A stretch of DNA of 64,000 nt from Branchiostoma floridae (lineage: Eukaryota > Chordata > Leptocardii > Amphioxiformes > Branchiostomatidae), in the NCBI RefSeq assembly GCF_000003815.2, contig NC_049981.1, positions 26,931,785 to 26,995,784 on the forward strand, written 5' to 3'. Position numbers and translations under genes: made by a program. The first letter of the stretch is position 1, and every line of letters begins with the position of its first letter. The notes under the pieces were generated by a model. That model searched no databases. It was not told the DNA's origin and was given only the letters and a program-made list of their open reading frames with translations. Positions 1,777 through 58,202 of this stretch are shown here, piece after piece.

Positions 1777-1797
1777 TTCAGCACCATGGACAGCACC
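1777..1797 (+). promoter_or_regulatory. RE1/NRSE-type site
   Basis: The 21 bases match the vertebrate RE1 consensus at 19 of 21 positions by my count, with both half-sites intact: left half TTCAGCACC, a two-base spacer, then right half GGACAGCACC. In vertebrates this is the operator bound by the zinc-finger repressor REST/NRSF. Whether this organism has a REST protein that binds it cannot be judged from the sequence. Confidence 0.6.
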
Positions 1798-1830
1798 TTC
1801 CATGTACTACATTTTGTATCTCTTTTGTTT

Positions 1831-2055
1831 CCTTATTACCTCCATGAGAAAAGGAGGTATTGTTTGGGGTGTGTCTGTTTGTGTGGTTGTCTATCTGTTC
1901 CTTATTACCTCCATGAAAAACGGAGGTATTGTTTGGGGTGTGTCTGTGTGTGTGGTTGTCTATCTGTTCCTTATTACCTTCATGAAAAACGGAGGCATTG
2001 TTTGGGATGATTTTGTGTGTGTGGTTGTCTATCTGTTCCCTTATTACCTCCATGT
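1831..2055 (+). repeat. tandem repeat, ~69-bp unit, three full copies plus a partial
   Basis: Units start at about 1831, 1900, 1969 and 2039, each opening with CCTTATTACCTCCATG. Each unit holds a short hairpin (CCTCCAT...GGAGG type) followed by a GT-rich stretch. The open frames on both strands here are by-products of the 69-base period, which is a multiple of three. A diverged relative in reverse orientation lies at 12150-12235, so the unit is interspersed as well as tandem. Confidence 0.85.
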
Positions 2056-8339: not shown

Positions 8340-8716
8340 GACACAATTCAATGTTTTGTATTCATTAAAGACCTCGTGGGCATGAGACCCGAATAGCGTC
8401 CGTATTACAAAAGGTTTACAACGTAGACCACATAAGACCATACGATTACAACATTTAAAGATCATCGCACAGTTAAAATCTATTTGTGTTTCCTTGGTTC
8501 GTGTAAGACTATTTCATGGATATATTACTGTTTACTGATCGCACAATGCAGGAAAGAGTTTCTGAGCCTGTGTGTACGGGCTTCTGGTATACTAAAGAAC
8601 CCAGCGATCCTTAGCGTCTGTCTCGTGGCAACAGTTCTTGAGGGTGCACTTGGTCGTGCAGAGGATGGTCCTTCTGAAGCATTCGCTCGAAAAAGTGAAC
8701 TGATCCTCCCTCCTTA
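8340..8716. other. non-coding, nothing recognised
   Basis: Unique sequence between the diverged tandem copies and the inverted-repeat element pair. A short open frame at 8484-8723 has no recognisable feature. Confidence 0.4.
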
Positions 8717-8724
8717 TGCCTAGG

Positions 8725-9585
8725 TTACACACAGCCGAATTTAGCTCCCGAACACCAGCCGACCCTTAGCCGACTCAGGTCGGCTGGTGTTCGGGAGCAG
8801 TCTGACCACGCCTATCTTTTAGCGCCGAACATGTCCCGAACATGTCCCAACCATCTCCCGACCAGTAAATGACTTACTCTCGACTGTGTCCCGAATGCTA
8901 ACTAACCTATTACCAACCATCCCGACCTCTAGCCGCAGACTGCCGAATCACTCCTGACTGATTCCCTACCGATTGTGACCCTCTTACGACTTGAAATGGA
9001 CATAATCAGCGATTTTTAAAAAGTAGCCATTTTCATGTTTCATCAAAATAATCCTTCTATTATGTAAACATCACCAAGAGATCAAATTTGGATCACAGAT
9101 AGCTCTAATATGGTATTTATGGTTCTTTTTGTTTTTGGCTGGATGTCGGTCGTGTGAAGTTCGGGGGTGATTCGCCTACGCCCTGGTAATAGTCATTTTT
9201 CTTGGGATTGAGTTGGTAGAGGTTTGTCTACGGGTTTCGGGTGAATCGTTGGTAGGTTGTAAACAAGCTGGGAGTATTTATCAGTGTTTATGGCTTGGTT
9301 AAGTAGTTGAAATTTGACTGCTGAGTTACTCCCGAACACCAGCCGAACACTAGCCGACCATGCCGAACACCAGCCGACCACCAACCGACCCATTCCAGAC
9401 CAGCCATTCAGAGCCGAATGTTTTGAACATTTCAAAACATTCGGCTGAGGCAGCCGAACACCAGCCGACTCACCCGAACGCCAGCCGACTCACCCGAACG
9501 CCAGCCGACTACAGCCGACTAGCTCCCGAATCACTCCTAAACCATAGTCGGGAGAGAGTTGGGAGCCAAATTCGGCTATGTGTAA
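8725..9585. mobile_element. inverted-repeat element, copy 1 (~861 bp)
   Basis: The ends are inverted repeats: TTACACACAGCCGAATTTAG at the left and the complement, ending ATTCGGCTATGTGTAA, at the right. TGCCTAGG lies directly outside both ends and may be a target duplication or part of a longer terminal repeat. Inside are a perfect 20-bp stem (8745-8764 with 8778-8797), a perfect 15-bp hairpin near 9413 and a run of short direct repeats of the AACACCAGCCGACTCA type near 9450-9510. No transposase is encoded, so it is non-autonomous. Superfamily not determined. Confidence 0.8.
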
Positions 9586-9593
9586 TGCCTAGG

Positions 9594-10460
9594 TTACACA
9601 TAGCCGAATTTAGCTCCCGAACACCAACCGACCCTCAGCCGACTCAGGTCGGCTGGTGTTCGGGAGCAGTCTGACCACGCCTATCTTTTAGTGCCGAACA
9701 TGTCCCGAACATGTCCCAACCATCTCCCGACCAGTAAATGACTTACTCCCGACTGTGTCCCAAATGCTAACTAACCTATTACCAACCATCCCGACCTCTA
9801 GCCACAGACTGTCGAATCACTCCAGACTGATTCCCAACCGATTGCTAACCCTCTTACAACTTGAAATGGACATAATCAGCGATTTTTAAAAAAGTAGCCA
9901 TTTTCGTTTTTAATCAAAATAATCCTTTCTTCTATCTTGTAAACATCACCAAAAGATCAAATTTGGATCACAGATAGCTCTAATATGGTATTTATGGTTC
10001 TTTTTGTTTTTGGCTGGATGTCGGTCGTGTGAAGCTCGGGGGTGATTCACCTACGCCCTGGTAATAGTCATTTTGCTTGGGATTGAGTTAGCAGAGATTT
10101 GTCTACTGTTTTGGGGTGAATCGTTGGTAGGTTGGAAACAAGCTGGGAGTATCTAGCAGTGTTTATGGCTTGGTTAAGCACTTAAACCTTGACTGCTGAG
10201 TTACTCCCGAACACCAGCCGAACACTAGCCGACCATGCCGAACACCAGCCGACTACCAACCGACCCATTCCAGACCCGCCGTTCAGAGCCGAATGTTTTG
10301 AACATTTCAAAACATTCGGCTGAGACAGCCGAACACCAGCCGACTCAGCCGAACGCCAGCCGACTCAGCCGAACGCCAGCCGACTACAGCCGACTAGCTC
10401 CCGAATCACTCCTAAACCATAGTCGGGAGAGAGTCGGGAGCCAAATTCGGCTATGTGTAA
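9594..10460. mobile_element. inverted-repeat element, copy 2 (~867 bp), same orientation
   Basis: It is collinear with copy 1 and differs by scattered substitutions and small indels; the two are separated by only TGCCTAGG. After the right end comes CCTAGGCATAACCTAGGCATAACC, two 11-bp tandem copies of the reverse complement of the sequence flanking copy 1. The terminal repeat therefore probably extends through CCTAGG. The pair could be one insertion beside another or a tandem duplication through the short repeat. Confidence 0.8.
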
Positions 10461-10839: not shown

Positions 10840-11320
10840 ACTGCTTCGGTTGTTAAAAAGGGTCTTCGGTTACCAACATTTAGATCTTTGTCCGGCTAAT
10901 TTCTGTGGCAGACCATTCCGTCCATTTAGCTATTTTCACTACATTTCCAGCAACCAAAGACATCTGGTTGAGACTACTTCAACGGCGTCATGTCTGACTT
11001 TAAGGCACTGTCGGTCAAAGTTCAAAACTGCCAAACCATGTTTATAGCCATTAGGGCGCCGTCACATTCGTCGTGGGTCGTCATACGGATTTTCATCCAG
11101 CTGTGGCAGAACCATTCGCAACCACCGACAATATTCTAAAACTGTCTTTTCGGTAACAAGACAGCTTAATTGTGTGCGACATAGTCACAACTATCCCAAG
11201 AATGCCCTCAGTTTGCCATCGATCGCACGACGATCGAAGACGTACACAGGAACAGTTCTACGCTTGTCTAGTCGCGCATGTCATCATATTATGTTGCAAT
11301 TAACCGTAGTCTTTTATAAT
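10840..11320. other. non-coding DNA with old repeat sequence
   Basis: Overlapping open frames on both strands carry no recognisable domain. The part at 11050-11250 has CGATCGCACGACGATCG-type palindromic blocks resembling 6370-6490 and 42520-42570, a probable family of decayed inverted-repeat elements. Confidence 0.35.
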
Positions 11321-11322
11321 TA

Positions 11323-11577
11323 TCTGGTGTATTTTGCCAGCCAGTATGTACCCCAAGTATGAGTAATGAGGCTGTTTAACGTGGTCGAGGCACCTCCTCG
11401 AGCACGGGACCCCCGTTTTACGTCCCTCCCGGAAGACGATTTCGTGGAAAACTTCGTGAGGCTACAGCAATCCGGACGTCCTTGGTTGGTCCCCCATCCA
11501 AGCACTATCCGGACCGCGCGTTGCTTAACTTCCGAGATCGAGGGATCGGGTGTACCAACGCGCCACGCGGCCGTAGC
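11323..11577 (-). mobile_element. 5S-rRNA-headed SINE (SINE3-type), minus strand
   Basis: Read on the minus strand, the first ~117 bases (11577 to 11461) align along the whole length of a eukaryotic 5S rRNA: GCTACGGCC at the 5' end, CTCGATCTCGGAAGTTAAGC in the A-box region, GTGCTTGGATGGGGGACC over the intermediate element and C box, and TTGCTGTAGC at the 3' end. It is too diverged to be a functional 5S gene. A ~140-bp body follows, with a core (GGGAGGGACGTAAAACGGGG) and an A-rich end. SINEs using a 5S-type RNA polymerase III promoter are known as SINE3. A second, head-less copy lies at 58055-58202. Confidence 0.8.
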
Positions 11578-11764
11578 TTTATGCCTGGTAAATAAAAGGC
11601 GGTATAGATGTTTTACTCAGAAATTTCCGGCTGACGCCAATTGATAAGTAGCTATCAAACGACATTTATGTCACATATAAAGTGGCATCGTTTAACACCA
11701 TAACAGGACAGCACCGGTTGGGAAAACGACAGACATGGCAACTATCAGAAATCAGTGGATATCA

Positions 11765-14395: not shown

Positions 14396-15286
14396 TGGAC
14401 AACAGAACAAAATATGTGACATCTTCTTTTGGAACTAAGATTTACTACTGGACAAACTTTAATTTGGAAGACCGAAGAAAGATAGATTTACTCATTGTCT
14501 GTTGTGAATAGGTAAACCTATTTTTGTGACCGCCGTGAAAAAGACGAATTGGAAACAAACAGAACTGTCCTTAGTACTGAATTCAAACCACATACATGAA
14601 AACAGAACTGCTCTGTGCTGGATATCATCCGCATACAACAACACCTGTCCTTACATCTGAATATCACCCTCAAAGAGGAAACACAGCCCTGTCCTTAGTG
14701 CTGAATATCATCCCCAAACAGGAACACGGCCCTGTCCTTAGTGCTGAATACCATCCCCAAACAGGAAACACAGGCCTGTCCTTACTATTGAATATCACCC
14801 TCAAACAGGAAATGGGCCTATCTTTACTATTGAATATCACACTCAAACAGGAACACAGGTCTGTCCTTAGTGCTGAATATCACCCTCAAACAGGAAAACA
14901 GGCCTGTCCTTAATACTTAATGTCACCCTCAAACAGGAAACAGCCCTGTCCTTAGTACTAAATATCATCCCCAAACACAACACACAGGTCTGTCCTTAGT
15001 GCTGAATATCACACTCAAACAGGAACACATGTCTGTCCTTAGTGCTGAATATCACCCTCAAACAGGAACACAGGAATGTCCTTAGTGCTGAATATCACCC
15101 TCAAACAGGAACACAGGCCTGTCCTTACTACTGAATATCACCCTCAAACAGGAAATGGGCCTATCTTTACTATTAAATATCACACTCAAACAGGAACACA
15201 GCCCTGTCCTTAGGGCTGAATATCACCCTCAAACACAACACACAGGCATGTCCTTAGTGCTGAATATCATCCTCAAACAGGAACAC

Positions 15287-15307
15287 AGGTCTGTCCTTGG
15301 TGCTGAA
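15287..15307 (-). promoter_or_regulatory. RE1-type unit with canonical core inside the minisatellite
   Basis: The minus strand reads TTCAGCACCAAGGACAG and then ACCT. The left half-site is perfect and the right half keeps GGACAG; 17 of 21 positions match the vertebrate consensus by my count. It differs from most array units by restoring the last C of CAGCACC. Confidence 0.5.
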
Positions 15308-16076
15308 TATCACCCTCAAACAGGAAATGGGCCTATCTTTACTACTAAATATCACACTCAAACAGGAACACAGCCCTGTCCTTAGTGCCGAATATCACCC
15401 TCAAACACAACACACAGGTCTGTCCTTAGTGCTGAATATCACCCTCAAACAGGAACACAGGTCTGTCCTTAGTGCTGAATATCACCCTCAAACAGGAACA
15501 CGACCCTGTCCTTAGTGCTTAGTATCACCCTCAAACAGGAAAGACAGCCCTGTCCTTAGTGCTGAATATCGACCTCAAAACAGGAACACAGGTCTGTCCT
15601 TAGTGCCGAATATCACCCTCAAAACAGGAACACATGCCTGTCCTTACTACTGAATATCGACCTCAAAACAGGAACACAGCCCTGTCCTTAGTGCTTAGTA
15701 TCACCCTCAAACAGGAAAGACAGCCCTGTCCTTAATACTGAATATAACCCTCAAACAGGAACACAGGTCTGTCCTTAGTGCTTAGTATCACCCTCAAACA
15801 GGAACACGGCCCTGTCCTTAGTGCTGAATATCACCCTCAAACAGGAAATGGGCCTATCTTTACTATTAAATATCACACTCAAACAGGAACACAGGCATGT
15901 CCTTACTATTGAATATCACCCTCAAACAGGAAATGGGCCTATCTTTACTATTGAATATCACACAGGAACAGGAACACAGGTCTGTCCTTGGAACAGAAAA
16001 TCCTCCACAAACGTTAAGCGGACAGGCAGACCTGTCCTTTTTGCTGAATATCAGCCACATACAATGATATACTAGC

Positions 16077-16097
16077 AGCCCTGTCCTTGGTGCTGAT
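16077..16097 (-). promoter_or_regulatory. RE1-type unit with canonical core at the array edge
   Basis: The minus strand reads ATCAGCACCAAGGACAG followed by GGCT, 17 of 21 to the RE1 consensus. It is the last recognisable unit; sequence beyond it no longer follows the repeat. Its core is identical to the isolated sites at 23589 and 26653. Confidence 0.5.
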
Positions 16098-16587
16098 TAG
16101 ATCCTTAGAGTTTCATTGTATAATACGTAATTGAATTTTAGCCATTAAATAATTGTGTCACTTGATATGGGTTGGCATCATATCTGGAACTTTCCAGAAA
16201 AGAAGCATGGAGGTTTATGACGAGAACAAAGACGATCGTGTGCGTCTGGTTCACACTATTTGGAGCAACTTCACAATACGATATCAAATTGCCATTTCAT
16301 AATGTAGGAAGTTTATTTGCAAGTTCGTGCCCGAGGGCTAATTGCAAGTACATGGTATACACATAGTGACAATGGACAGTCATAAACAATATTCTAATCT
16401 AATACTAGTGTTGGCTATTTCTAAACAGGTTGGGTTTGAGTTCTTTTTTGGAAGCAGAGGGAGACGAAAAGCCCCACATTTTCTAAAATTTGTGGGTTCT
16501 GCGATTTCAAGAGAAAAGTGGCTTTCTGTTCGTCTGTCAATGTGGCGAAGTTGGGATAATACTTGACATAATGTCAACCCAGAAACA

Positions 16588-20127: not shown

Positions 20128-20148
20128 TTCAGCACCAGGGACATAGGT
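20128..20148 (+). promoter_or_regulatory. RE1-like site, intact left half
   Basis: TTCAGCACCAGGGACATAGG: the left half-site is perfect and GGACA of the right half is kept with correct spacing. The 3' end departs from the consensus, giving about 16 of 21 matches. It is the weakest of the four isolated sites. Confidence 0.4.
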
Positions 20149-23588: not shown

Positions 23589-23609
23589 TTCAGCACCAAG
23601 GACAGGGCA
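23589..23609 (+). promoter_or_regulatory. RE1/NRSE-type site
   Basis: It contains TTCAGCACCAAGGACAGGGC; 18 of 21 positions match the RE1 consensus by my count, with both half-sites and correct spacing. The same 26-27 bases (TGAG + site + T) recur at 26653, but the flanks beyond are only weakly similar. Confidence 0.6.
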
Positions 23610-26652: not shown

Positions 26653-26673
26653 TTCAGCACCAAGGACAGGGCA
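26653..26673 (+). promoter_or_regulatory. RE1/NRSE-type site
   Basis: Identical in all 21 positions to the site at 23589, about 3.06 kb away and in the same orientation. Right and left half-sites are intact. The identity suggests duplication or strong constraint. Confidence 0.6.
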
Positions 26674-35239: not shown

Positions 35240-36947
35240 CAGCGTTCCCGCCAGGCATACGTCTTTACGTCTTTGGACGCATTTTTTCCTGGAAAGACGC
35301 ACTCGGCTCAGCTGAATGCGTCCATAAAAAAATATGAAAGAAAGGCTGACCTGTACCACCAGTGTACAAAATGTATCTGGAATCTTTTTAAAAATCTGTC
35401 TTTATACGAAGGAATCCTACCTTTACAATTTATACTTCAAATTCTTCACTTTCCGGTCATCCTAGTAGTCTGGGCATGGGGCGGAGCGCGGCACGCTTTA
35501 CAACTAGCGGACCCATGTGCGACACACCCAGCCACGCGCCAGTCTGAGCTGTCCGTTGCGCAATGTAATTTTTTGTAGTCCGTGAAATACGTCTGACAGT
35601 CAGCATTCTTTAACACTCGAAGAAATCTTATGCAGATTTTATATTCTGATATTAACATGATACTTACTTGTCCTCAGTTTCACGTATTTGTTAAAGATTT
35701 GTGGGTAATACTAGTATTGAACAAGCAAACTGCTCTGCGCGAGTGCTGCACATCTCAACAAAAGTTCTCACACTGTGGGCAGTTGATTGGCAGTCGGTAT
35801 CTTTGACAACAGGCCGCTAGCGCCAAGCAGTCTAGATTGGCCACCAGGTCCAAATCCAATCATCTTAATAACCAATCAGCATTTGATAAATGTAATGTTG
35901 CACTCTGTTATTGGTCACCGGAAAAAAAACAAAAGTTACCGAGTATTAGCGCACGTGACGTTGGTAGCCGCCCGTGTCGTCTGGCAACTTGACTTTCTTC
36001 CCTAGCTGCTAACAAAAAACGGTGCGCGGTAAATAAGTGAAGAATCCAAAACTATACACTTTATTTCTTATTTACAAAATTTCTTTTATTTCAAAAAGAC
36101 AAAATTTGCGGCAGAAAAGGGGCCGCAATATTGTTGTCAAGCGTCGATCGAGTCGGCTGTGCACTCCGTGGCACATGTCACGGCACGCCCCCCTCCCCAG
36201 ACGGACCGTCGATCGCAGCGCCGTCTTTCTGGCTACTGCTTCAAGGTTACACCGGCAATGATCACTGCCAAAGAGGCAGCAGATCGTCCTCCTCGAGTGA
36301 TGTATAACGTTCTTGGTCTATTTAAAAAGAAATCCAGCCAAAGATTTCACGCCGAAAACGGGGTTACCTGAGGTCGCAGGAACAAACGCACGCTCGTGGA
36401 AAATGACGGCAAGGCCTTGTAAAACCCCACCGATTCAAAACATTTGACTAAAATCATCGGGCAAAATAGAAAAAAGACACAAAGTGTGATGGCGCCATTA
36501 TTTTATCGTCTCGGAAAAATTTTTGATGCGGGAGGGCGCAACATCGATCGCACGAGGTAACGTTAGACATTTTTTTTTCAATGACGGAAAATAATTGGCA
36601 GAATTTTTTTCACGGGCTGACGGACAGGCTAGGCCGCTAGAGCCCTGTTTCGAAGCATCAAAAATCCAAAATTTTCATATAGATATGTCTGGACAAATAA
36701 TACCCGGGCCAGATCACGGAAGGCTGATTCCCTGTGCTTACAGTTGTTTTTAATATACGTATTTTGATGAAGAGGGTGGTCGTCGATAACTGAAAATGGG
36801 AGTAAAAGAGGCAACCGACATCCAATCTCAAGTGCATGATTATCCTCTCAAATTGCAGGAAATTGTGTTCTAGAGGGTTTGAAAATCCAAATTTTCCCGG
36901 GGGAGCATGCCCCCGGACCCCCCTAGAATGCGAGCGCCTGCGGCGCT
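35240..36947 (-). mobile_element. hAT-type element, left copy (runs into the assembly gap)
   Basis: This is the mirror image of the right copy at 37341-39126: coordinates sum to 74366 over the whole visible length, and I see no mismatch in the parts I compared. The outer end is CAGCGTTCCCGCCAGG at 35240. The inner end would fall at about 37025, inside the gap. Its outer flank (CGGTACAG) differs from the duplication around the right copy, so the two are separate insertions rather than one element assembled twice. No transposase frame is recognisable. Confidence 0.8.
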
Positions 36948-37340: not shown

Positions 37341-39126
37341 CAGCGTTCCCGCCAGGTTTTTGAAAGTATGCGTCCAAATATTTGGGAGGGGCGTAATGAG
37401 CGCCGGAGGCGCGAGACGAGCGCCGCAGGCGCTCGCATTCTAGGGGGGTCCGGGGGCATGCTCCCCCGGGAAAATTTGGATTTTCAAACCCTCTAGAACA
37501 CAATTTCCTGCAATTTGAGAGGATAATCATGCACTTGAGATTGGATGTCGGTTGCCTCTTTTACTCCCATTTTCAGTTATCGACGACCACCCTCTTCATC
37601 AAAATACGTATATTAAAAACAACTGTAAGCACAGGGAATCAGCCTTCCGTGATCTGGCCCGGGTATTATTTGTCCAGACATATCTATATGAAAATTTTGG
37701 ATTTTTGATGCTTCGAAACAGGGCTCTAGCGGCCTAGCCTGTCCGTCAGCCCGTGAAAAAAATTCTGCCAATTATTTTCCGTCATTGAAAAAAAAATGTC
37801 TAACGTTACCTCGTGCGATCGATGTTGCGCCCTCCCGCATCAAAAATTTTTCCGAGACGATAAAATAATGGCGCCATCACACTTTGTGTCTTTTTTCTAT
37901 TTTGCCCGATGATTTTAGTCAAATGTTTTGAATCGGTGGGGTTTTACAAGGCCTTGCCGTCATTTTCCACGAGCGTGCGTTTGTTCCTGCGACCTCAGGT
38001 AACCCCGTTTTCGGCGTGAAATCTTTGGCTGGATTTCTTTTTAAATAGACCAAGAACGTTATACATCACTCGAGGAGGACGATCTGCTGCCTCTTTGGCA
38101 GTGATCATTGCCGGTGTAACCTTGAAGCAGTAGCCAGAAAGACGGCGCTGCGATCGACGGTCCGTCTGGGGAGGGGGGCGTGCCGTGACATGTGCCACGG
38201 AGTGCACAGCCGACTCGATCGACGCTTGACAACAATATTGCGGCCCCTTTTCTGCCGCAAATTTTGTCTTTTTGAAATAAAAGAAATTTTGTAAATAAGA
38301 AATAAAGTGTATAGTTTTGGATTCTTCACTTATTTACCGCGCACCGTTTTTTGTTAGCAGCTAGGGAAGAAAGTCAAGTTGCCAGACGACACGGGCGGCT
38401 ACCAACGTCACGTGCGCTAATACTCGGTAACTTTTGTTTTTTTTCCGGTGACCAATAACAGAGTGCAACATTACATTTATCAAATGCTGATTGGTTATTA
38501 AGATGATTGGATTTGGACCTGGTGGCCAATCTAGACTGCTTGGCGCTAGCGGCCTGTTGTCAAAGATACCGACTGCCAATCAACTGCCCACAGTGTGAGA
38601 ACTTTTGTTGAGATGTGCAGCACTCGCGCAGAGCAGTTTGCTTGTTCAATACTAGTATTACCCACAAATCTTTAACAAATACGTGAAACTGAGGACAAGT
38701 AAGTATCATGTTAATATCAGAATATAAAATCTGCATAAGATTTCTTCGAGTGTTAAAGAATGCTGACTGTCAGACGTATTTCACGGACTACAAAAAATTA
38801 CATTGCGCAACGGACAGCTCAGACTGGCGCGTGGCTGGGTGTGTCGCACATGGGTCCGCTAGTTGTAAAGCGTGCCGCGCTCCGCCCCATGCCCAGACTA
38901 CTAGGATGACCGGAAAGTGAAGAATTTGAAGTATAAATTGTAAAGGTAGGATTCCTTCGTATAAAGACAGATTTTTAAAAAGATTCCAGATACATTTTGT
39001 ACACTGGTGGTACAGGTCAGCCTTTCTTTCATATTTTTTTATGGACGCATTCAGCTGAGCCGAGTGCGTCTTTCCAGGAAAAAATGCGTCCAAAGACGTA
39101 AAGACGTATGCCTGGCGGGAACGCTG
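37341..39126 (+). mobile_element. complete hAT-type element, 1786 bp, 8-bp target duplication
   Basis: The terminal inverted repeats are CAGCGTTCCCGCCAGG at 37341 and its complement ending at 39126. AGTAGTCC is duplicated exactly at 37333-37340 and 39127-39134. A CAGNG terminus with an 8-bp duplication is the hAT signature. Just inside the left end is a run with GAGCGCC-GAGGCGC and GGGGGGTCCGGGGGCATGCT, a GC-rich subterminal block. Open frames are at most ~100 codons and none is transposase-like, so the element is probably non-autonomous. Confidence 0.85.
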
Positions 39127-49149: not shown

Positions 49150-50499
49150 TCAAGGATATCCCACTGTCGGGGCACCGAGTCTTGCCGCGTATAGCCCGTA
49201 GGGTGAGTAGAACGCGCCCGGGGTGGGTGCATGGAGTTGGAGGGAAGGCATGGCAAGCGATGGCGGGGCCCCTGTCGGCATGGGTGGCTTGTATGGGTGG
49301 TACCTGTAACTATGAAGTCCGTTTACAGGAGACGTAGGGTACCCCGGGCGAAGTAGTCCTGCCGCGCTGGCGGCCGAGGGGTAGTGAAGATGGCACCCGT
49401 TCAGGGCAGAACTGGTGAGGGAGGGGGTGAACAGGGAGCCGGCCTGAGACCCCGACATGGTGTGCGTTCTCAAATGTTGCAAAAGTTCCTCCGAGGTGGC
49501 AAAGCGCTTCCCGCAGCTGCTGGTCCCCGAGACCCAGTTGCAGACGTGGGGCAGCATGGTGCTGTAGGGTGAGTACAGGGGCGTCCCGAGACCCGGGGCA
49601 CCAGCCATGCTAGTTGACGCGGAGTATAGTCCTGGGTGCCCGAGGGGTAGGTAGGGGAAGGGAGAGGGGTAGGGAGTGTCGTGGGTACATTGTTTGCACC
49701 CGGCTGCCGCAAACTGTGCGCCCTGACAGTTCGTACAGTAGGGGTCCCTACAGATAGGCATGAGAGCCGTCGCACCCGTGGACGTTTTCACATAGGCGTA
49801 GGGGTTGGGAGCGGTGCCCCCGGCCAGCGGACTGGCATCCAGCTTCCCCGCGGCCATGCTGGGTGGCAAGGTGCTCGGTAGCTGCGCTGTCATGGCTCCC
49901 TTGGACGGGTCGAGGAGAGACGATCCCGAACCACAGGCGCACCCGGCTCCGCAGGGAAGTGCGCCCGGAAGGTGGGGTGCGATCGACGAATGTCCCGGTT
50001 TTGGCGAGCTGGGCGACAGATGACTCGGCTGGACACTCAGGCTGCTCTTCTCGGTCGAGTTTCCGCCTGAGTTGGTCTCGTGGTGGTTGACCTCCACGAA
50101 CATGCCCCCACAACTCACGTTGATTCGACTGTGACTGACGCCGACACTCGACGTTGAACTTGACGTAACCGTGGACGTTGAAGTGTTCTCTGTCTTCCTC
50201 TCCGACTCGTGTTCGGACCCGGCTGGTGTTTTGTCTCCAGCCGTGCTACCCGCTGCGCTGTTTGGGGTGTGGAAACCCGACTTGCTGGAAGACTCTCCCT
50301 CGGTCTTCTCCTCCTTCTTGTACGGTTTGAAAGAGGACTTATCCCCGTCCACGACAGAAGATTTCGACGGAGAAGCGGATGAGGTACGCTGGTCCTTCTC
50401 GATAGAAGACGAAGCTTGTTTGGACGGGAGCTCAGTGTCTTTGCCAATACTGCTGCATGTTTGGGCGAGGAGAGCGAGGGGGCTCTTCTTAGCGTCCAG
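49150..50499 (-). CDS. znf503/703-like: ZNF503/ZNF703 (Nlz/NET family) zinc-finger protein, exon 2 of 2
   Basis: Encodes residues 57-505 of a 505-residue transcriptional co-repressor of the Noc/Elbow/Nlz/Tlp-1 (NET) family, nuclear proteins that pattern eye, hindbrain, limb and nerve cord in other animals. The exon opens with the invariant LDAKKSPLALLAQTC (57-71). It continues with the FKPY motif (113-116), reported in this family for Groucho recruitment; a conserved RINVSCGGMFVEVN (181-194); a Buttonhead-box-like CRDPYCTNCQGAQFAAAGC (306-324); the single atypical zinc finger C376-x8-C385...H398-x3-H402 with KRFATSEELLQHLRTHT; and the family C-terminus FYSPYGLYAARLG near 486-498. The acceptor is TTTGTCTCACAG, phase 0. 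It lacks the poly-Gly/Ala tracts of the vertebrate proteins. The 462-codon open frame that starts in the intron is not the true start. Confidence 0.95.
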   Translation of the reverse strand: MDAKKSPLALLAQTCSSIGKDTELPSKQASSSIEKDQRTSSASPSKSSVVDGDKSSFKPYKKEEKTEGESSSKSGFHTPNSAAGSTAGDKTPAGSEHESERKTENTSTSTVTSSSTSSVGVSHSRINVSCGGMFVEVNHHETNSGGNSTEKSSLSVQPSHLSPSSPKPGHSSIAPHLPGALPCGAGCACGSGSSLLDPSKGAMTAQLPSTLPPSMAAGKLDASPLAGGTAPNPYAYVKTSTGATALMPICRDPYCTNCQGAQFAAAGCKQCTHDTPYPSPFPYLPLGHPGLYSASTSMAGAPGLGTPLYSPYSTMLPHVCNWVSGTSSCGKRFATSEELLQHLRTHTMSGSQAGSLFTPSLTSSALNGCHLHYPSAASAAGLLRPGYPTSPVNGLHSYRYHPYKPPMPTGAPPSLAMPSLQLHAPTPGAFYSPYGLYAARLGAPTVGYP

Positions 50500-51299
50500 C
50501 TGTGAGACAAACGGAAGACAAGAGTCAGAATCTATCATGCCGCACTAGCAACAACAACTACATACATCACAGCTCATCAAGGAACCTTTATTACCAAGAA
50601 ATGAGAAATGCAGTAGACACAAAATGACGAATGTTTGTGTAACCCTCTCATCAATTCGGTCATAAATTAAACCCGGGTTACTACCCACACACTGGTCGTG
50701 CTGTTCTCTGTATCTACACATGCAGAATCGGGCACACAGCCGCGTTTTCAGTTCGTCAGGAAATGGGGAAATCTTCTGAGGAATTAAGGAAATCGTGGCT
50801 GGGATAAAATACACATACACAAACATTGTGTGTGCCTGAAAGGGGAAACATTGGGCGGAAATTTCCTATGACTCATTCCAACAGATGTGATGGTCATTCT
50901 CAACATGAAGCATGGGTGCCGTGGGAAATGCATGCACAGTTTAGGCCCAGGTTTCGCTTGGGCAGAATTTAGTAGAACATCAGGCGGATAACTGTAAATA
51001 TATACATCTAAGACCGGTAGGAGAGGATTTCAAGTCTGTCAAGAATAAGCACTGATCAGATACACATCAGTCAGATAACGCTAGGTTTCACGAAGCCAGA
51101 CAAAAAATACTTTTGGGGTCCCTCTAAAGATCCCAAGTGCGTACTAGGCGAGGAATTTGTTCGGGGCACGGGTACCGGGCCCGGGACGTGCCGTGAGCGG
51201 AAGACGGACACGCACTGTCCCAAATGTGTACGCTCCCACCGCCCGGTAATTAATCACGGGGAATCGGGGACGGGGTGAGACCGTAGCGTATCGACCTAC
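50500..51299 (-). other. intron of the zinc-finger gene (800 bp, phase 0)
   Basis: Starts with GTAGGT (51299-51294) and ends with TTTGTCTCACAG (through 50500). The intron falls just before LDAKKSP, the position where vertebrate ZNF503/703 genes also join a short first coding exon to a long second one (established knowledge, from memory). No coding signal inside. Confidence 0.85.
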
Positions 51300-55990: not shown

Positions 55991-58050
55991 TTCAAGAATA
56001 CACATTTTACCCCCTAGGTCTCCCCCCGATAATTACAATCACAATTCGCAGTAGGAGTGACAGTATGTATTGAGGGGGAAAGCAAAGCCGCTGACAAGTG
56101 AAAATGGGACCAAGTTTCTTGCCTCAGAATTCGGTACCTTTAATCCCCACGGGGTTTCTACCCTGTGCTACCATGAGAGAGTTATCATTCTGCTTTGACA
56201 AAAGAGGTCGAAAATACCGCCGCTTTGAAGCTATGCATGCCCGGACACCTTCTAAGTGGAGAGAAATGGTTTGCAAATCGAGGTTAGTTCCAGAAAAAGA
56301 ACCCATTTCTATGAAAATAAAGCAGACGGTTTTCTCACAATGCATACTCACAGTAATGGTCATCTAATGCCCTTTTACAGACATAAAATTCTTAGCTCAT
56401 GTTTGTACTTTCATCTGGAACAATGCTACAGAGGGGATACAAGCGACGAGAAAATTATCGGGTTCTAGTCTAGTCTAGTTATGTGACATTGACGTCTATG
56501 TTAAAAACAGGGACTACAAGAGAGTCTGAGGTTTACCTTATGTGAAACCCGAAATAAATGAAATTCGAAAGTAAAAGCAACTTCCCATTGCCCTCACTAT
56601 TTCCTAGTTCATCAATTAGAACTTTAGGCTAAGTTTATTCTCAGTGTAACACAAACTCTGCTGTCCGGGCTGTAAACTGGCCCCTCCTGCAATGTTGGGC
56701 GGTCTGTATACCTCTAAATGGCAAAGTCTTGTATCCCTCTTTCAGCCTCCTTGCTTGTATCTATGGAAAATATGTCAAGGACATGTAGCATTTGTCATTG
56801 TATATAAACTGTGTTGTGTGGAAGACTATGGGAACATGCTTTTACAGTGGAAGGACAAAAGCAATTCTGGAAGACTTTTTGTGAGATGATATATTTCAGA
56901 TACTAGAGTAAAACGTAAAAATGAGTTTAAATAATACGATTAGTTCACAGGGACCAAACTTATACAAAGTGTCAGAAAAAAAAGAAAGTTCGCTGATCCA
57001 GGATAAAACATACACACTTTAAGTTCCTTTTCACTTGTCCGTCTGAGGTTGGATACCTGCTGTTAGTATGTTTTCCCACCCAAATCTCCTTCGAGTGCTT
57101 GCGTTAAGTATGGCTGGAACGCTGACACAATTGAATCAGTTCGTTCGTTTGTTTGTTATCCTTTATGTATTCACGAAGAACTCAAATCGGTCTTTCTGGG
57201 ATCACGAAGGAAGATGTATGGATCAGACAACATAAAACAAAGATATAGATCACATGGTTGCACGTGGAAGTCCAAATAAATCCATAAACGAATACGCATG
57301 TTAACATGTTGGGTAGCCGAACTATGGGGTACAGCAAGAAGAGCAGTCTTCACTGGTATAATCTATCTATATTAAAAGTTCATTCAGAACAGATTTAATT
57401 GTCACTATAAAGGCCCTATTCCTACTCCCTATCTTGTAATACTAGTAGTCAATGGGTGAACTACTAAATTTATTTACATCTACCAAGCTAGCCTTCAGCG
57501 CATATATTAATAATCACGGTGCAATAACGATATGTTTGTGAGACACAAAAACATAACTCTCTCATCCTATGTTCTTTTCAGCCTTTTTGATCGGACGACA
57601 AGTAGAGCTAACCAACAGTAACATGTGTAACGAATTTGCTGGTCTTGAACAATGCAAAATGGCGCAGACCAAGGACGCTTTGTTAAGTTAGAGGAAAAAT
57701 TAGTGTTCGCTGATATTTTGATTGACTGCATAAATTGGTTTCTTTCTTATTTCTTTCGTTGAAACTTGACCTGGCATTTAAAGCCATCGGTTCTTATTTG
57801 TTTGGTGAAAGAATGACAAGAAATCAAATAATTTGACAAATGTGGAAAGCTAACACTAAGCTAGCAACACTTACTTATAACAGGCATTGTCCTTATTCCT
57901 TTACTTAGCCTGATAATGGGTTTATAAATTGATAAGAATAAAAGTTTGGTGATTCTTGTGTATTTTGGAGGATAGCAGACTTTAAGCATGTTCGTATGGT
58001 ACAATATGGCGTTGCAGTTTCCCTCTCTCAATATTGTTATAATAATAATA
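55990..58050. other. AT-rich non-coding DNA
   Basis: Short open frames only. Sequence around 57130-57180 (TTCGTTCGTTTGTTTGTT) looks like the low-complexity tail of a retroposon. Nothing else recognised. Confidence 0.35.
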
Positions 58051-58054
58051 ATAA

Positions 58055-58202
58055 TCTGGTGTATTTTGCCAGCCAGTAGGTACCCACAGTATGAGTAATG
58101 AGGCTGTTTAACGTGGTCGAGGCACCTCCTCGAGCACGGGACCCCCGTTTTACGTCCCTCCCGGAAGACGATTTCGTGGAAAACTTCGTGAGGCTACAGC
58201 AA
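58055..58202 (-). mobile_element. SINE copy truncated exactly at the 5S-head/body boundary
   Basis: About 95% identical by eye to 11323-11469, from the 3' end through GCTGTAGCCTCACGAAG. The 5S-derived head that should follow at 58200 is absent. On the minus strand the 3' end runs into (ATT)n, a simple-repeat tail. 5' truncation of this kind is usual for reverse-transcribed insertions. Confidence 0.8.

What the first reader, a model, noticed from the sequence alone, without database searches (positions are those of the whole stretch)
14562..16105. A minisatellite whose repeat unit is an RE1/NRSE-like operator
Each ~43-bp unit carries, on the minus strand, TTCAGCAC(T/C)AAGGACAG: the left half-site, two-base spacer and right half-site of the vertebrate REST/NRSF operator. 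I count about 36 units, roughly 11 with the near-consensus CACT core and two with the canonical CACC core. A tandem array of RE1-like sites could act as a REST sink, a silencer or a structured heterochromatin nucleator. I know of no description of such an array. Caution: most units have T where RE1 normally has C, which may weaken binding.
Basis: partly seen in the sequence, partly recalled or inferred. Interest (0 to 1): 0.85.

Follow-up and report, generated by a model that had tools for sequence, protein, structure and literature searches.

The report
Tandem array of RE1-like silencer motifs
This animal genome, probably an amphioxus, carries thousands of copies of the DNA motif that vertebrates use to silence neuron genes, many of them multiplied into tandem repeat arrays, and the array in this window looks like one worn-down member of that family.

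Summary
A 43-bp minisatellite (TRF 14644-15989, 31.2 copies) carries an RE1-like 17-mer per unit on the minus strand: 11 sites with at most one mismatch to TTCAGCACCNNGGACAG, none in 200 shuffles. This array is degenerate: 1 of 30 sites is perfect, the consensus has T for C at position 9, and its RE1 columns are less conserved than its spacer (0.872 vs 0.914). The larger finding is genome-wide: 7,427 exact cores in 513 Mb, reversed pattern 1, and 2,064 exact pairs 25-55 bp apart. Of 34 arrays compared, 24 group by spacer and 10 do not. Of 35 fetched singletons, 20 share no flank with any other fetched locus and 32 lack the array-family flank. The two central bases vary, and 7-8 bp half-site gaps are in excess. 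I read this as a real two-half-site operator bound by a REST-like zinc-finger protein. No REST orthologue was established. The species is probably amphioxus (inferred, unconfirmed). Sink and silencer roles are untested.

The parts
14562..16105 (-). whole RE1-like minisatellite, including degenerate end units
14644..15989 (-). core tandem array, period 43, 31.2 copies; RE1-strand unit TTCAGCACTAAGGACAG + GCCTGTGTTCCTGTTTGAGGGTGATA
15291..15307 (-). the only perfect RE1 core in the array (TTCAGCACCAAGGACAG)
16081..16097 (-). end unit with a CACC core, one mismatch (ATCAGCACCAAGGACAG)
1777..1793 (+). isolated perfect RE1 core TTCAGCACCATGGACAG
20128..20144 (+). isolated RE1-like site, one mismatch
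23589..23605 (+). isolated perfect RE1 core TTCAGCACCAAGGACAG
26653..26669 (+). isolated perfect RE1 core TTCAGCACCAAGGACAG

Best explanation
The window array is one member of a genome-wide population of RE1-type operators: two half-sites, TTCAGCACC and GGACAG, separated by 2 loosely constrained bases. Many independent sites are single copies kept as a bare motif. Others were multiplied in place: a segment of some 26-52 bp holding one motif duplicated in tandem and became a minisatellite. One such lineage, a 43-bp superfamily of RE1 plus a ~26-bp spacer, spread and diversified, and the window array belongs to it. Arrays with a perfect motif would then act as dense homotypic silencers or as decoys. 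The window array is an old or relaxed member in which a weaker T9 variant was spread by repeat homogenisation, so it probably binds poorly. Shown: the motif population, the lack of shared flanks at 20 of 35 fetched singletons, the diversity of units, and the relative conservation within arrays. Inferred: the protein, repression, titration, any chromatin effect, and the route of array birth.
For: Exact cores 3,462 + 3,965 = 7,427, reversed control 1; up to 1 mismatch 16,728, control 22. Exact-exact pairs 25-55 bp apart 932 + 1,132 = 2,064, control 0; the 100 listed pairs, all on C1, have periods 31-52. The first 100 exact sites on C1 fall into 44 clusters, 35 single, with 10 different central dinucleotides among the 35, AA in 18. 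In 28 single sites from fetched loci, 26 of 30 flank columns carry under 0.2 bits, the highest 0.57. 20 of 35 exact singletons match no other fetched locus over 150 bp each side; 3 of 35 match the superfamily flank at the 1% level, one of them the window array's own unit. 24 of 34 arrays group by spacer, 10 do not. In the 7 TRF rows with a perfect consensus RE1 is better conserved than the spacer in 7 of 7 (sign test p = 0.016). Long-gap pairs without a 2-bp-gap site: gap 7-8, 11 seen in the 100 listed of 131, 1.4 expected; gap 11-14, 8 seen, 3.7 expected. Mouse REST also binds half-sites at altered spacing (PMC2573930 passages).
Against: No REST orthologue was established. Human REST finger queries return generic fingers with a flat score list, the REST Pfam model is not specific here, and the one locus with a REST-ZF9-like C-terminal finger has an upstream finger array whose helix residues do not look like human REST's (helix comparison by eye). 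In arrays with imperfect consensus, the window's included, RE1 is better conserved in only 1 of 6 TRF rows. 15 of 35 singletons do have some flank match elsewhere, being in degenerate arrays or other repeats. [quoted passage not shown] if that means gaps of 9-13, my 7-8 excess does not coincide, and 9-10 shows only 3 against 1.4. Loci were chosen by exact hits, which favours well-conserved RE1. No binding, expression or neuronal-gene association was tested.
Confidence: 0.58

Rival explanations
1. A plain dispersed minisatellite superfamily. The 17-mer is just the best-preserved stretch of a 43-bp repeat that spread by copying, and nothing reads it; isolated copies are eroded arrays or lie in other repeats.
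For: 24 of 34 arrays group by a diverged spacer. L012 and L018 singletons keep superfamily flanks; by eye, window sites 23589 and 26653 share similar bases before the core and GGCAT after it. AA dominates the centre (18 of 35 singletons). 15 of 35 singletons have some flank match elsewhere. The window array's RE1 is not better conserved than its spacer.
Against: 20 of 35 singletons share no flank with any other fetched locus and 32 of 35 lack the superfamily flank. 10 of 34 arrays did not group, though 3 of those have spacers of 9-13 bases, too short for a fair test. The bases that vary at the centre are those free in RE1. A chance match of a repeat to all 15 fixed positions of the vertebrate consensus is implausible.
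Confidence: 0.22
2. The motif is read by a different, lineage-specific C2H2 protein, possibly one that starts recombination (PRDM9-like). Breaks at the bound motif would seed tandem duplications, so that different minisatellites share only the motif, as the human minisatellite core was linked to recombination (recalled).
For: Arrays found by the core have unit lengths from 26 to 52 bp and partly unrelated units. Zinc-finger searches give 4,253 and 5,614 first-look candidates and no clear REST orthologue.
Against: The match is to the vertebrate REST consensus at all 15 fixed positions with the same 2-bp gap, and long-gap half-site pairs exist. PRDM9-type sites erode rather than stay perfect (recalled).
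Confidence: 0.15
3. A very short mobile or templated insert of about 17-20 bp is copied into unrelated sites and sometimes expands in place.
For: Bare cores without shared flanks.
Against: Central bases differ among isolated copies while the search fixes the 15 others, and half-sites occur at altered spacing; both fit protein reading rather than copying. No known element of that size is recalled.
Confidence: 0.05

Closest known systems
RE1/NRSE operator of vertebrate REST/NRSF
   Same: All 15 fixed core positions and the loosely constrained 2-bp gap; half-site pairs at altered spacing occur in mouse too (PMC2573930 passages).
   Different: Here thousands of perfect copies and tandem arrays in a probably invertebrate genome; the mouse passages mention tandem RE1s only within 1 kb of Snap25 and Celsr3. 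The window array has T at position 9.
MIR137 VNTR with REST binding (human)
   Same: A tandem repeat with a potential REST site whose genotype changes reporter activity (PMC4393679 passages).
   Different: A single 15-bp VNTR of 4-12 copies at one gene, not a genome-wide family of arrays built around a perfect core.
Lineage-specific RE1 gain in mammals
   Same: RE1 numbers grow in a lineage; [quoted passage not shown] Spread on transposable elements is recalled.
   Different: Here 20 of 35 fetched singletons share no flank with other fetched loci, so carriage by a transposon is not evident for them.
Amphioxus 'mirage' minisatellites
   Same: Minisatellites in cephalochordates with length instability (PMC3087553 passages; also PMC3902484 passages).
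   Different: Defined as tandem duplications of exon-intron boundaries; no RE1 core is described in the passages seen.
Human minisatellite core / PRDM9 motif, and CENP-B box in alpha satellite (both recalled)
   Same: A protein-binding box shared by otherwise different repeat units.
   Different: Different motif and protein; relation by analogy only.

Membership tests
RE1/NRSE operator | TTCAGCACC-NN-GGACAG core (consensus recalled) | tested here: met
   genome-wide 7,427 exact, control 1; but in the window array only 1 of 30 sites is exact and the consensus has one mismatch
RE1/NRSE operator | unconstrained 2-bp gap between half-sites | tested here: met
   10 dinucleotides among 35 singletons, AA in 18
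RE1/NRSE operator | tolerates enlarged half-site spacing | tested here: inconclusive
   gap 7-8: 11 seen, 1.4 expected; 9-10: 3 vs 1.4; 11-14: 8 vs 3.7. Duplication of GACAG also makes gaps of 7 and 8, so only sites with 3 or more mismatches at the 2-bp position were counted; the mouse range (expanded by 7-11) may not coincide
RE1/NRSE operator | a REST protein in the genome | tested here: inconclusive
   only 150 candidates scored in each
RE1/NRSE operator | bound by REST and repressing nearby genes | not testable with these tools
   needs binding or ChIP data
RE1/NRSE operator | preferential location at neuronal genes | not tested
   planned but not run
minisatellite | head-to-tail units of about 10-100 bp | tested here: met
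transposon-carried RE1 | copies share flanking element sequence | tested here: inconclusive
   20 of 35 singletons have no flank match in other fetched loci, 15 have some; the comparison covers only 285 kb of held sequence, the window included
amphioxus mirage | units span exon-intron boundaries | not tested
   no gene model at the array

The most novel reading that the evidence does not exclude
In an invertebrate chordate a REST-type silencer code has expanded to thousands of perfect sites, and binding of its reader itself provokes tandem duplication, so that a transcription-factor motif is the seed of a whole class of minisatellites. If no canonical REST exists there, the RE1 code would be older than, or independent of, vertebrate REST.
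Probability: 0.25. Interest if true: 0.93.

Novelty: new variant of a known kind. Interest (0 to 1): 0.8.

Why it matters
REST is usually described as a vertebrate neuronal repressor; one paper calls it conserved in vertebrates (PMC5573535 passage). A genome, probably of an invertebrate chordate, with thousands of perfect RE1 cores and many RE1 minisatellites would move the origin of this code back or reveal a second reader. It would also give a natural set of dose-graded silencer arrays, and a case in which a binding motif rather than a transposon is the common element of different minisatellites.

Tried and rejected
REST orthologue: the human REST finger 2-8 query gives C15:4002005 (45% identity) and then a long list of similar fingers. 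L049 and L050 are generic tandem-finger proteins, and L061, the best PF24540 place, is too; PF24540 scores 73, 118 and 64 bits on the three, so it cannot decide. The finger 2-4 query gives a flat list, best 6.8e-12. The C-terminal finger query gives one place, C4:20253621. Its protein ends in an isolated VCIYCDRSF finger behind C2H2 exons, but alignment to the REST fingers is 30-35% in several registers, so I do not call it REST. A search of solved structures with one of its exons gave only other zinc-finger proteins among the 60 best shown of 186.

Gene context of isolated sites was planned (one search counted 50,196 residues of open frames in 24 loci) but not run. The 3-33 bp gap search is dominated by neighbouring motifs and was followed. 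The literature was searched ten times in the PMC library; what I saw were listings, some capped (one search showed 12 of 845). One search (REST + NRSE + tandem + minisatellite) returned 0 papers, and no listed title or abstract start describes RE1 minisatellites or an RE1 expansion in amphioxus. Passages of an amphioxus microRNA paper mention REST/NRSF only in background and abbreviations (PMC3145563). Species test: a fluorescent-protein query did not complete.

Two facts were stated more exactly: 20 of 35 singletons, not most in general, lack flank matches, and the mouse gap range may not coincide with mine. For the same reason the transposon row of the membership test is now inconclusive.

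Full report
Observation. The window holds a 43-bp minisatellite at 14644-15989 with 31.2 copies. On the minus strand the units carry an RE1-like 17-mer. Against TTCAGCACCNNGGACAG (consensus recalled), 30 sites with 5 or fewer mismatches lie in 14501-16150: 1 perfect (15291), 10 with one mismatch (9 of them CACT units), 7 with two, 8 with three, 3 with four and 1 with five. In 14562-16105 there are 11, 18 and 26 sites at up to 1, 2 and 3 mismatches, against means of 0, 0 and 0.025 in 200 shuffles. Three perfect isolated sites (1777, 23589, 26653, plus strand) and one with one mismatch (20128) lie elsewhere in the window.

Genome-wide. The window lies in a 513,431,437-base assembly of 431 contigs. 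TTCAGCACYAAGGACAG occurs 4,780 times, reversed 0. The full core with free centre occurs 7,427 times, the reversed pattern once; with up to one mismatch 16,728 times, reversed 22. That is about 207 per one-mismatch variant against 7,427 for the perfect core. The first 100 perfect sites, on the first 8.7 Mb of C1, form 44 clusters, 35 of them single; if C1 is typical this means some 2,600 independent loci (extrapolation). Some of the 35 are the only perfect unit of a degenerate array (for example L044 and L038).

Isolated sites. In 28 single sites from fetched loci, 26 of the 30 flank columns examined carry under 0.2 bits and the highest 0.57. With the core masked, 20 of 35 exact singletons find no match in any other fetched locus over 150 bp each side; the other 15 do have a match elsewhere, in degenerate arrays or other repeats. 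Of the 35, 3 match the superfamily flank at the 1% level, one of them the window array's own unit, whose spacer was used in the model; among non-singleton sites 52 of 76 do. Ten different central dinucleotides occur among the 35 single sites. So for many sites what repeats is the bare motif with the free bases of RE1. The sample is the start of one contig plus the window and was chosen by exact hits.

Arrays. 2,064 exact pairs lie 25-55 bp apart, control 0; the 100 listed pairs, all on C1, have periods 31-52. I took one spacer by hand from each of 35 named arrays (28 C1 places with at least one listed pair, 3 picked from the C2 rows, L015, L042, L029 and the window; L029 is the 417-kb array, so 34 distinct). 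By single linkage at z of 4 or more against shuffles, 24 including the window's form one group and 10 do not join it, with unit lengths 26-52. Three of the 10 have spacers of only 9-13 bases, too short for a fair test. Aligning units without reference to RE1 gives RE1 versus spacer identity of 0.956/0.906, 0.973/0.874, 0.915/0.877, 0.963/0.892, 0.982/0.908, 0.933/0.885 and 0.985/0.942 in the 7 TRF rows with a perfect consensus (7 of 7; sign test p = 0.016). In the 6 rows with an imperfect consensus (one array counted twice) RE1 is better in 1 only (0.967/0.957); the window is among the 5 others (0.872/0.914).

Spacing. TTCAGCACC-N7-10-GGACAG occurs 131 times, reversed 0. Of the 100 listed, 86 still look like a 2-bp-gap site next to a duplicated GACAG; 14 do not: gap 7 in 4, 8 in 7, 9 in 2, 10 in 1. 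For gaps 7-8 that is 11 against 1.4 expected; for 9-10, 3 against 1.4. Gaps 11-14 occur 14 times in the whole genome (reversed 3), 8 of them without a 2-bp site, 2 of these overlapping a neighbouring core, against 3.7 expected. [quoted passage not shown] if that means gaps of 9-13 the excess at 7-8 does not coincide. Gaps of 7-10 are what I recall for human REST. The agreement is partial.

The reader protein. No REST orthologue was established. Finger queries return a flat list of generic fingers, only 150 of 4,253 and 150 of 5,614 candidates being scored. PF24540 is unspecific here. A single place has a REST-like terminal finger (C4:20253621; 42% over 43 residues) downstream of C2H2 exons, but their helix residues, compared by eye, do not resemble human REST's. 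REST may be diverged, missed or absent, or another protein reads the motif.

Species. Assembly size and the finger type CGECGYRTA/CDQCDYSA suggest Branchiostoma floridae (recalled). The paper on its assembly gives 19 chromosomes and 489 Mb of contigs (PMC7269912, passages), which is compatible. A direct test did not complete (eight attempts).

Judgement. The RE1 character of the motif is very well supported at genome scale. Being an operator read by a REST-like protein is the best explanation (0.58). That the window's own array is a strong REST sink is unlikely given its T9 consensus and relaxed RE1 columns. How the arrays act, as silencer cluster, decoy or by-product, is inference.

Noticed in passing
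window 35240-36947 and 37419-39126: Perfect 1,708-bp inverted repeat (100%) with 471 bp between the arms; an N run lies between the arms, so possibly an assembly artefact.
   Followed up: no
window 11459-11578 (-), and 11316-11470 repeated at 58048-58202: 5S rRNA-like match (54.4 bits) adjoining a 155-bp repeat that recurs at 97% identity, perhaps a 5S-derived SINE.
   Followed up: no
window 49150-50538 (-): 462-aa open frame with one C2H2 finger below the Pfam cut-off; looks like a Noc/Nlz (ZNF503/703) family exon (recalled).
   Followed up: no
window 8716-10228: Tandem duplication of about 870 bp (93-96%) containing short CCGAAC-type tandem repeats.
   Followed up: no
window 1829-2054: 69-bp tandem repeat, 3.3 copies, starting 36 bp after the end of the isolated RE1 core at 1777.
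   Followed up: no
L016 1189-3461: Ten RE1-like sites with 2 or fewer mismatches at irregular spacing, one perfect, the others changed mostly in the right half-site.
   Followed up: partly
C1 28.05-29.42 Mb: RE1 arrays look crowded: 11 of the 28 C1 places with a listed exact pair lie in this stretch, where the capped list ends.
   Followed up: no
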